From Claveliimonas bilis (GTDB taxonomy: Bacteria > Bacillota > Clostridia > Lachnospirales > Lachnospiraceae): a stretch of 64,000 bases of DNA. The notes beneath the pieces are model-generated. The model saw only the letters and a list, made by a program, of their open reading frames with translations. It did not search any database and was not told where the DNA came from. A program made the position numbers and the translations under genes. Shown here piece by piece: positions 17,088 through 19,313 of this stretch (position 1 is the first letter of the stretch; each line of letters opens with the position of its first letter). The stretch is taken from assembly GCF_030296775.1 (NCBI RefSeq), contig NZ_AP027742.1, positions 2,790,001 through 2,854,000 of the forward strand, in the 5' to 3' direction.

Positions 17088-17468
17088 TTATTTCGCTTTA
17101 TCTATCATGTAGGATTGCAGGCTTTTTTGACAGCCATTTTTTTCATAAAATCTTTCCACTCCCGGCTGCGCGCCAAAATATAACATAGTAGGAGTGTTCT
17201 CCTTTGCAAGTTCAAGAAGTTTACTTCCTACACCTTGCCTTTGATATTCCGGAAGAACAAGCAATTCTGTAATCGTTCCAAAAAAATACCCGTCTGTAAG
17301 AATGCGCAGGCACCCCACAAGTATTTCATTATCATACGCTGTAATATTCACTGTCTTAGATAATGCAGTTTGTGTCCGTTCCATATCATAATCGCCTTGC
17401 CATATTTGATTGACAAAGGGCAGGAAAACCGAAGCCGCAAGCTCTGTATCATTTACTTTATATTCCAT
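17088..17468 (-). CDS. GNAT family N-acetyltransferase
   Basis: A 126-residue protein with the GNAT core: ITELLVLPEYQRQGVGSKLLELAKE (about residues 66-90), with the acetyl-CoA-binding Q-x-x-G-x-G/A of QRQGVG, then LYFGAQPGVERFYEKNGC near the end, as in many small acetyltransferases. The substrate is unknown. I start it at ATG 17468 with AGGG five bases upstream; an in-frame ATG at 17498 lacks a ribosome site and lies in what is probably the IS110 left end. The insertion may therefore have separated the gene from its original promoter. Confidence 0.8.
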   Translation of the reverse strand: MEYKVNDTELAASVFLPFVNQIWQGDYDMERTQTALSKTVNITAYDNEILVGCLRILTDGYFFGTITELLVLPEYQRQGVGSKLLELAKENTPTMLYFGAQPGVERFYEKNGCQKSLQSYMIDKAK

Positions 17469-17491
17469 TTTATCCCTGGTATATTGTAATT

Positions 17492-17687
17492 GACTCATCT
17501 AACGGTCACTTACAAATATACCGTCTCCTTTCTATCAACCTTTTAGTCCGTGGTTGATTACGGTATTGTACATTTGTATGATGTAAATATGTGATGTGGA
17601 TTTGTATTTTTTTATCCTGTGGCTTTGACTACTTGTAGGAGGTTCTCACCACACCTTATTTCTAAATAATGATTAGTTAGATGAGTC
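17492..17687. repeat. 12-bp perfect inverted repeat in the IS110 left end
   Basis: GACTCATCTAAC at 17492-17503 and its exact reverse complement GTTAGATGAGTC at 17676-17687 are 172 bp apart. The second copy is inside the candidate bridge RNA, so the RNA would be complementary to the top strand at the presumed left end. Confidence 0.85.
17554..17582 (+). promoter_or_regulatory. Candidate bridge RNA promoter
   Basis: TTGATT (17554-17559), 17 nt, TATGAT (17577-17582), predicting a start near 17589, well before the transposase gene. Confidence 0.6.
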
Positions 17688-17765
17688 TTGAATTCCTATC
17701 TTGTACCAGGTTTTACGAAGTAAGTGCTGTGGATAACACATTGCATATTTTTTACGAAAGGAATG
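17589..17765 (+). ncRNA. Candidate IS110 bridge RNA
   Basis: The 180-odd bases between the promoter and the transposase ribosome site hold no ORF, and the size matches the bridge RNAs described for IS110 elements (IS621: about 177 nt). It contains a 12-nt segment (17676-17687) complementary to the presumed left end, as a donor guide should be, and local complementary stretches such as AGGAGGT/ACACCTT. The ends and loops are inferred, not folded. Confidence 0.5.
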
Positions 17766-17772
17766 TATTATC

Positions 17773-18957
17773 ATGATTTTAGTCGGAATTGACATTGGTA
17801 AACATCAACACATCTTCTCCATCATTGACAAACAATCCGGTGAAATACTTTCTAATCCTTCTGTTTTTCATAACAATCAAGATGGCTTTTTGTTACTCAT
17901 CGGAAAACTAAGCTGCTATGCCAAATCACAGCTTCTTATTGGCATGGAAGATACCGGGCATTATCATTTTGCCTTACTCAAATATCTTCTTAACAGGCAC
18001 TATACTGTTGCTCTGATCAACCCAACCACTACTGACCTTACCAGAAAACTTCAGGGCGGCATTACCAAAAACGATCCCCTGGATTCTCTTACCATTTGTG
18101 ATGTCATCGGCTCAAATCAGCGTAAAAAGCCTTATCGCATTACAAAAGTAAACCGTTTCGACCTTTATGAACAAAAGCAGCTGACACGCCATCACCACAA
18201 CCTGAAAGAGGAATTAAACCTCTACAAAAACCGGCTTCAGAAATGTATTGATATCGTATTCCCTGAATTTAATTCCTTATTCCGTTCAAAGTATGGCATT
18301 GTTTACATGAATGTTTTAAAATCGTTTGCTTCTGCTGAAAAGATTGCAAACTCTGATATCCGGACCATCCGGAAATGTTTTGAATATGAGGGGCGCGGAA
18401 AACGGATTCAACTTTCTGCCGAACAGCTTAAAACAGCAGCCAAAGCTTCTGTCGGCATCTCTTCTGTTGCTGAAGAAATCCAGATCAGACACCTTGTAAG
18501 TCAAATTGAAATGATAGAAGAACAACTTTCTGAAATAGACAAAAAGATAGAAGAGTTTTCCCTGCAAAACAACTCTCCTATCCTCTCCATACCAGGAATT
18601 TCACACTTCTCTGGTACTTCTATTTTAGCGGAATTAGGAGATGTTTGCAACTATACAAAAGCGTCTCAAATCATTAAATTTGCCGGTGTCGCCCCATATC
18701 ACTATGAATCCAGTCAGTTTATCGCCCGGCATACTGCAATCACCAAGAAAGGTTCCCGGTATCTGAGAAAAACACTGTATCAGATTATCTTGCCGGTCAT
18801 CAATCACAACAGGGTCTTCACTTCTTATTACAACAAAAAGATAGCCGAAGGCAAAGGTCACAGATGTGCTCAGGGTCACTGTATCAGAAAACTTTTAAGA
18901 GTCATCTATCATCTTCTAAGTACCGGACAGAGTTTTGATTCTACGTTACTGATATAG
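17773..18957 (+). CDS. IS110-family DEDD transposase (bridge-RNA recombinase)
   Basis: A 394-residue recombinase. The RuvC-like DEDD domain shows Asp7 (GIDIGK), Glu59 (GMEDTG), and Asp101/Asp104 (KNDPLD). A coiled-coil region spans about 235-265 (QIEMIEEQLSEIDKKIEE). The Tnp20 domain has ILSIPGISHFSGTSILAELGD near 270-290, and the predicted nucleophile Ser at 313-314 sits in APYHYESSQF before KKGSRYLRK. All catalytic residues are intact, so it may be active. The start has AAAGGA 9-10 nt upstream. It lies directly after the candidate bridge RNA. Members cut and join DNA without target duplication. Confidence 0.92.
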   Translation: MILVGIDIGKHQHIFSIIDKQSGEILSNPSVFHNNQDGFLLLIGKLSCYAKSQLLIGMEDTGHYHFALLKYLLNRHYTVALINPTTTDLTRKLQGGITKNDPLDSLTICDVIGSNQRKKPYRITKVNRFDLYEQKQLTRHHHNLKEELNLYKNRLQKCIDIVFPEFNSLFRSKYGIVYMNVLKSFASAEKIANSDIRTIRKCFEYEGRGKRIQLSAEQLKTAAKASVGISSVAEEIQIRHLVSQIEMIEEQLSEIDKKIEEFSLQNNSPILSIPGISHFSGTSILAELGDVCNYTKASQIIKFAGVAPYHYESSQFIARHTAITKKGSRYLRKTLYQIILPVINHNRVFTSYYNKKIAEGKGHRCAQGHCIRKLLRVIYHLLSTGQSFDSTLLI

Positions 18958-19313
18958 CTATAATTACAACCCAGCTTATTACAATGAGCCTTCTTGGGAA
19001 GGTCTGTTTGTTGTGCCACAAAATCCATAATTATTCACATATTTTCAAAGTACATACTTTTACTAACTAAAATTCAATGTTAAAAAAACTACTTGATTTT
19101 TATATAGTTAGCTCCTATATATAATGAATCATATTCCGATAATCTTTCCATCTATGCCTGCATCTTCGCATACACTGGATTTTTCATATTCTCATTCTAC
19201 CATAGCTCTCCTTTTTCCGGCAATCTCTGTTCTCCCTGTTCTTTCTATATTATTTATATTTTGCCGTAAGTGAAATGGACTTTTCCCTTGCCTGTAATCT
19301 GCTCATTTGATTC
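18958..19313. other. Non-coding stretch: IS110 right end and relic DNA
   Basis: About 350 bp without a gene. The first 50-100 bp must hold the right end of the IS110 element. The remainder is AT-rich and has many stops in all frames. On the minus strand short fragments near 19120-19230 are preceded by a GGAGAGC ribosome-site-like sequence but stop within ten or so codons; I recognise no protein in them. Confidence 0.5.

What the first reader, a model, noticed from the sequence alone, without database searches (positions are those of the whole stretch)
17490..17772. IS110 element with a likely bridge RNA and matching donor guide
A promoter (TTGATT-17-TATGAT) is followed by about 180 nt without ORF, ending at an intact DEDD/Ser transposase gene. 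Within it, GTTAGATGAGTC is exactly complementary to GACTCATCTAAC at the presumed left end, 172 bp away. IS110 bridge RNAs carry donor guides that pair with the element's own ends, so the match fits a right-donor guide and places the left end near 17490-17500. Only a few bridge RNAs have been studied.
Basis: partly seen in the sequence, partly recalled or inferred. Interest (0 to 1): 0.7.

Follow-up and report, generated by a model that had tools for sequence, protein, structure and literature searches.

The report
Shine-Dalgarno-seeking IS110 element with bridge RNA
This is a mobile DNA element whose own guide RNA steers it into the ribosome-binding sites just in front of genes; a second conserved stretch at its left end looks able to switch off half of that guide RNA.

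Summary
The 12-nt complementarity, promoter-like motif and intact IS110 recombinase are real. Four near-identical genomic copies and three empty sites in a second genome of the species fix the element at 17476-19113 with a CT core. The left end is 17476, not 17490-17500. A bridge RNA is strongly supported: in 34 guide sets from relatives, the left and right target guides match each element's own insertion site (permutation p<5e-5, z=9.0 and 7.6), and the predicted helices covary (0/500 shuffles).

GTTAGATGAGTC overlaps the left donor guide, which matches the right end; the right donor guide lies at 17697-17709 and pairs at the core.

Two further results. (1) The target guides spell a Shine-Dalgarno sequence. 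41 of 56 insertions sit antisense in it, 4-16 nt from an ATG opening an ORF (background 8%). IS900 is a known precedent. Folding of RNA starting at the RE-LE junction promoter shows the 12-mer helix replacing the donor-binding loop. IS621 lacks it. An auto-occlusion switch is inferred, not shown. No RNA data were available.

The parts
17476..19113 (+). IS110 element, 1636 bp plus the shared CT core (17476-17477 left, 19112-19113 right)
   Evidence: Four near-identical copies in the genome; three empty sites in a same-species genome rejoin with one CT
17477..17485 (+). Extended -10 (TGGTATATT) of the junction promoter; pairs with TTGATT at 19093 across 17 bp only when RE and LE are joined
   Evidence: Sequence; conserved in relatives
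17478..17522 (.). Left-end hairpin/palindrome GGTATATT...AATATACC with the 12-mer in its loop
   Evidence: 8 pairs, 96.8% of cells paired, covariation score reached by 0/500 shuffles
17492..17503 (+). GACTCATCTAAC: complementary to left donor guide plus donor-hairpin arm; at the expected start of the junction-promoter RNA
17534..17558 (+). 5' stem-loop ATCAACC...GGTTGAT, in the position of the IS621 5' stem-loop
   Evidence: 6 of 7 pairs change on both sides
17554..17582 (+).
   Evidence: Same slot and spacing in nearly all of 28 relatives
17595..17653 (+). Target-binding loop, closing stem 17595-17599 with 17649-17653
   Evidence: 95% of cells paired
17609..17618 (+). Left target guide TTTTTATC plus core CT
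   Evidence: Matches own targets across 34 guide sets, z=9.0, p<5e-5
17619..17632 (+). Target-loop hairpin GTGG-CTTTGA-CTAC
   Evidence: 100% of cells paired
17633..17641 (+). Right target guide TTGTAGG plus core AG; with the left guide spells a Shine-Dalgarno sequence
   Evidence: z=7.6, p<5e-5; AGGAGG match
17655..17724 (+). Donor-binding loop, closing stem 17655-17662 with 17717-17724
   Evidence: A-U/G-C 22:6 and C-G/U-A/U-G 19:6:3 with no exceptions at two pairs
17673..17682 (+). Left donor guide TTAGTTAGAT, copy of RE end ATAGTTAGCT
   Evidence: Follows RE in subfamilies: AGTTAG, AGTTGT, AGTTCG against RE AGTTAG, AGTTGT, AGTTCA
17676..17687 (+).
17683..17695 (+). Donor-loop hairpin GAGT...ATTC
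   Evidence: 100% of cells paired
17697..17709 (+). Right donor guide TAT-CTTGT-ACCAG, pairs with CTGGTATA (17476-17483) discontiguously
   Evidence: Invariant or nearly so in 28 sequences
17773..18957 (+). IS110 recombinase, 394 aa
   Evidence: PF01548 3e-33, PF02371 1e-18, NF033542 above cut-off
19093..19098 (+). TTGATT, -35 of the junction promoter in the right end
17088..17468 (-). Host GNAT acetyltransferase gene whose Shine-Dalgarno (AGG-AG-GGATAAA-ATG) holds the insertion

Best explanation
An intact IS110-group element moves by bridge-RNA-guided recombination at a CT core. Its bridge RNA is encoded between the left end and the recombinase gene. The target-binding loop reads a Shine-Dalgarno sequence, so the element inserts in one fixed orientation, antisense, into ribosome-binding sites just upstream of start codons. 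The donor-binding loop reads the joined right and left ends. Shown by sequence: ends, empty sites, guide-target matching, RNA helices, insertion context. Inferred: transcription, RNA-protein assembly and catalysis. Further inferred (about 0.45 likely): RNA starting at the RE-LE junction promoter carries GACTCATCTAAC at its 5' end, which pairs with the left donor guide and closes the donor loop, whereas RNA starting at the internal promoter, or processed RNA, lacks it and is active.
For: Four copies and three empty sites in the same species. Guide-target matching by permutation, p<5e-5 on both sides. Helices: 96.8% of cells paired, 9 pairs changed on both sides, 0/500 shuffles. Start codon plus ORF 4-16 nt from the core at 44/56 sites, 41 ATG, against 16% and 8% background (binomial 1e-32 for ATG). 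The same context in the sister group at 45-46% identity. LDG follows RE. 12-mer pairing: 95.8% of cells paired, p=7.5e-4 across subfamilies. Folding: mean probability of the 12-mer helix 0.87 and of the donor-loop closing stem 0.05 in junction-start RNA, against 0.48 without the 12-mer.
Against: No RNA or transposition data. Some guides fit their target poorly (L050, L066, L073). Within the 28-sequence alignment the 12-mer shows conservation but no covariation beyond shuffles. The 12-mer is also the loop of a left-end hairpin, so its conservation may have another cause. Some insertions (L039, in coding sequence) are not at real ribosome-binding sites. The window copy itself has no clean empty site: only its left half aligns in G329.
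Confidence: 0.9

Rival explanations
1. One reading: GTTAGATGAGTC is the right donor guide and the left end is near 17490-17500.
For: Exact 12-nt match, more than chance; the RNA segment would pair with the left end's top strand, as a right donor guide does.
Against: Left end is 17476 by copies and empty sites; pairing must include the core (Durrant 2024, PMC11208160), and the 12-mer starts 14 nt past it. A core-adjacent right donor guide exists at 17697-17709. The segment matches the right end as left donor guide and follows it.
Confidence: 0.03
2. The 12-mer is a DNA-level site: an extended or second binding site for the donor loop at the left end, for example for excision from the integrated state.
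For: The left end's top strand pairs collinearly with hairpin arm and left donor guide beyond the core-adjacent right donor guide; conserved and tracking the guide; also sits in a palindrome.
Against: A 22-bp donor suffices for IS621 (PMC11208160). The left donor guide cannot pair with both ends at once.
Confidence: 0.3
3. The 12-mer occludes only read-through RNA from outside, protecting the element from unwanted activation; the left-end hairpin has the same role.
For: The hairpin contains the junction -10, so it can form in RNA only in read-through transcripts; the 12-mer helix also forms there, mean 0.54.
Against: The predicted junction start coincides with the 12-mer, which would be a coincidence.
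Confidence: 0.2
4. Insertion near start codons comes from promoter-region or purine preference of the recombinase, not from the RNA guides.
For: All targets are purine-rich on the minus strand.
Against: Guides and targets match element by element, including lineages where the core sits in another register of the Shine-Dalgarno.
Confidence: 0.04

Closest known systems
IS621 (IS110 group) and its bridge RNA
   Same: Recombinase domains and catalytic residues, CT core, long left end with 5' stem-loop, target loop and donor loop, discontiguous right donor guide, junction promoter (PMC11208160, PMC11208158; IS621 copy L176)
   Different: Different target (REP-like, from general knowledge, against Shine-Dalgarno), longer right target guide, conserved internal promoter, and a left-end 12-mer complementary to the donor loop; IS621's longest such match is 5 nt
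IS900 of Mycobacterium avium subsp. paratuberculosis (IS110 group)
   Same: Targets translation-initiation signals: motif CATGNNNNNNTCTCCTT (Conde 2021, PMC8141618; Doran 1997 as cited there), same antisense placement
   Different: No bridge RNA guide analysis of IS900 was found in the papers read; IS900 carries a hed frame on the other strand, none sought here; different phylum
ISEc21 / seekRNA elements (IS110 and IS1111)
   Same: Non-coding RNA upstream of tnp guides target choice; junction promoter (PMC11187229)
   Different: Different targets; no donor-loop occluding segment reported in the text searched

Membership tests
IS110 family, IS110 group | DEDD RuvC-like plus Transposase_20 domains with catalytic Ser | tested here: met
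   PF01548, PF02371, NF033542; D7, E59, D101, D104, S313/314
IS110 family, IS110 group | Long non-coding left end, shorter right end, no terminal inverted repeats | tested here: met
   LE 295 bp, RE 156 bp
IS110 family, IS110 group | No target duplication beyond the core; precise empty sites | tested here: met
   Joined flanks with one CT match G329 over 302 bp at three sites
Bridge RNA | Target guides complementary to both strands of own insertion sites | tested here: met
   z=9.0 and 7.6, p<5e-5
Bridge RNA | Donor guides complementary to RE and LE next to the core | tested here: met
   LDG follows RE; RDG pairs with CTGGTATA in nearly all of 28
Bridge RNA | Conserved secondary structure with two internal loops | tested here: met
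Bridge RNA | Transcribed and bound by the recombinase | not testable with these tools
   No RNA-seq or binding data; Rfam has no matching family
IS110 family, IS110 group | Circular intermediate | tested here: inconclusive
   RE+LE junction forms TTGATT-17-TATATT, but no circle reads available
Shine-Dalgarno-targeting IS110 (IS900-like behaviour) | Insertion antisense between Shine-Dalgarno and start codon | tested here: met
   44/56 sites, sister group

The most novel reading that the evidence does not exclude
A self-switching bridge RNA: RNA made from the circular form begins with a segment that captures the left donor guide and dismantles the donor loop, while an internal promoter or processing yields the active form. 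One element would then make two RNAs of opposite activity from the same stretch, timing excision and insertion.
Probability: 0.4. Interest if true: 0.75.

Novelty: new variant of a known kind. Interest (0 to 1): 0.6.

Why it matters
It gives an RNA-guide explanation for why some IS110 elements land on translation start signals, known for IS900. Because the Shine-Dalgarno is everywhere and essential, it is a target that never runs out; guides in different lineages have kept it while shifting register. The conserved donor-loop complement suggests bridge RNAs may be regulated by their own 5' end, which is directly testable and relevant to engineering bridge recombinases.

Tried and rejected
Rejected: 12-mer as right donor guide; left end at 17490-17500. 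My first reading of the core as CCT and of AATTCCT as left donor guide was dropped once relatives showed RE ending TAGTTAG-CT. Rfam gave no match. Family-wide search of 397 genomes found no further close relatives, so relatives came from genome contigs and another order. A dedicated outward promoter in the left end for the split host gene was looked for by eye and not found. The first LE:LDG script failed on a wrong pattern and was redone.

Full report
Observation. GACTCATCTAAC (17492-17503) and GTTAGATGAGTC (17676-17687) are exact complements, each unique in the window. A 12-nt inverted repeat of this kind arises in 3 of 2000 dinucleotide shuffles of the region. The promoter-like pair TTGATT-17-TATGAT is at 17554-17582, and the recombinase gene 17773-18957 is intact.

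Ends. The genome holds four near-identical copies. Aligning them and then comparing relatives places the core CT at 17476-17477 and 19112-19113. In a second genome of the same species without the element (G329), joined flanks with a single CT match over 302 bp for three of the four copies: 100%, 99% and 99%. For the window copy only the left flank is found.

Bridge RNA. 32 loci with relatives came from genome contigs, one from viral contigs and more from another order. In 34 distinct guide sets the left target guide matches 5.8 of 8 target bases, against 4.5 when guides are permuted; in the 28 sets with a right flank the right target guide matches 5.0 of 7 against 3.5; both p<5e-5. Five helices (5' stem-loop, target-loop closing stem and hairpin, donor-loop closing stem and hairpin) have 96.8% of cells paired and 9 pairs with changes on both sides; 0/500 shuffles reach this, and sliding the partners destroys it. 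The layout is that of IS621: 5' stem-loop, target loop, donor loop. Rfam has no matching family.

Donor guides. ATAGTTAG-CT at the right end is copied in TTAGTTAGAT (17673-17682), the left donor guide. In subfamilies where the right end reads AGTTGT or AGTTCA, the guide reads AGTTGT or AGTTCG. The left-end CTGGTATA pairs with TAT...ACCAG (17697-17709), invariant or nearly so in 28 sequences. This is the discontiguous right donor guide described for IS621 (PMC11208160).

Target. Read on the minus strand, the guides spell purine runs that match the anti-Shine-Dalgarno complement over 5.5 nt on average, against 3.9 for shuffles; the window's spells TTGTAGGAGGATAAAAA. Of 56 insertion sites, 44 have a start codon opening an ORF of at least 40 codons (or one running off the contig) within 3-21 nt of the core on the minus strand, 41 of them ATG. 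Random positions give 16% and 8%; the binomial probability for ATG is 1e-32. In the window the split site is AGG-AG-GGATAAA-ATG of a GNAT gene. The sister group at 45-46% identity, whose core appears to be AT, also lands a few bases from ATG next to CCTCC. IS900 has the motif CATGNNNNNNTCTCCTT (PMC8141618), so this targeting has a precedent; I found no paper linking it to bridge RNA guides, within an open-licence library only.

The 12-mer. Within the 28-sequence alignment its pairing is kept in 95.8% of cells but does not covary beyond shuffles. Across subfamilies it tracks the donor-loop sequence, p=7.5e-4 over 15 distinct classes and p=0.01 over 9 core classes; relatedness is not fully controlled in that test. 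The right and left ends joined form TTGATT-17-TATATT with an extended -10, from which RNA would start near 17492, the first base of the 12-mer (inference). Folding such RNA gives the 12-mer helix mean probability 0.87 over 28 sequences and the donor-loop closing stem 0.05; without the 12-mer the closing stem rises to 0.48. The internal promoter, kept in position and spacing in nearly all of 28 relatives, would make RNA without the 12-mer. IS621 has no such complementarity, longest match 5 nt. I infer a donor-loop occluder, at about 0.45; a DNA-level role is the main rival.

Verdict. A real IS110 element with a well-supported bridge RNA, guides reassigned, Shine-Dalgarno targeting established by comparison, and a testable regulatory feature.

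Noticed in passing
17525-17536 (minus strand GATAGAAAGGAG): A Shine-Dalgarno-like sequence on the minus strand of the left end is conserved in nearly all relatives, just inside the left-end hairpin; it could serve translation of the split host gene, or be a resident pseudo-target.
   Followed up: partly
L058 2064-2205: A partial left end of one copy, cut exactly at its left-target-guide CT, is followed by a full copy: the guide-coding DNA is itself a perfect left target, so self-targeting seems to have occurred.
   Followed up: partly
L161, just upstream of the left end: One copy is inserted next to AGCATATAGTTGT-CT, which resembles its own right end, suggesting insertion at a donor-like site.
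   Followed up: no
19040-19113 and relatives: The right end carries an inverted copy (ACTAACTA; AGCTAACT in relatives) some 50 nt before the terminal TAGTTAGCT; function unknown.
   Followed up: no
L039 (G000:C1 near 1184000): One copy lies inside what reads as a coding sequence at GTAGGAGGATATGG, a chance Shine-Dalgarno look-alike; this fits guide recognition rather than gene context.
   Followed up: partly
G000:C1 775416, 522092, 525288, 1478307: Other, distantly related IS110 copies or fragments in the same genome; their guides were not studied.
   Followed up: no
L060/L129: A relative with an enlarged left-end hairpin (extra inverted repeat) around the 12-mer region.
   Followed up: no
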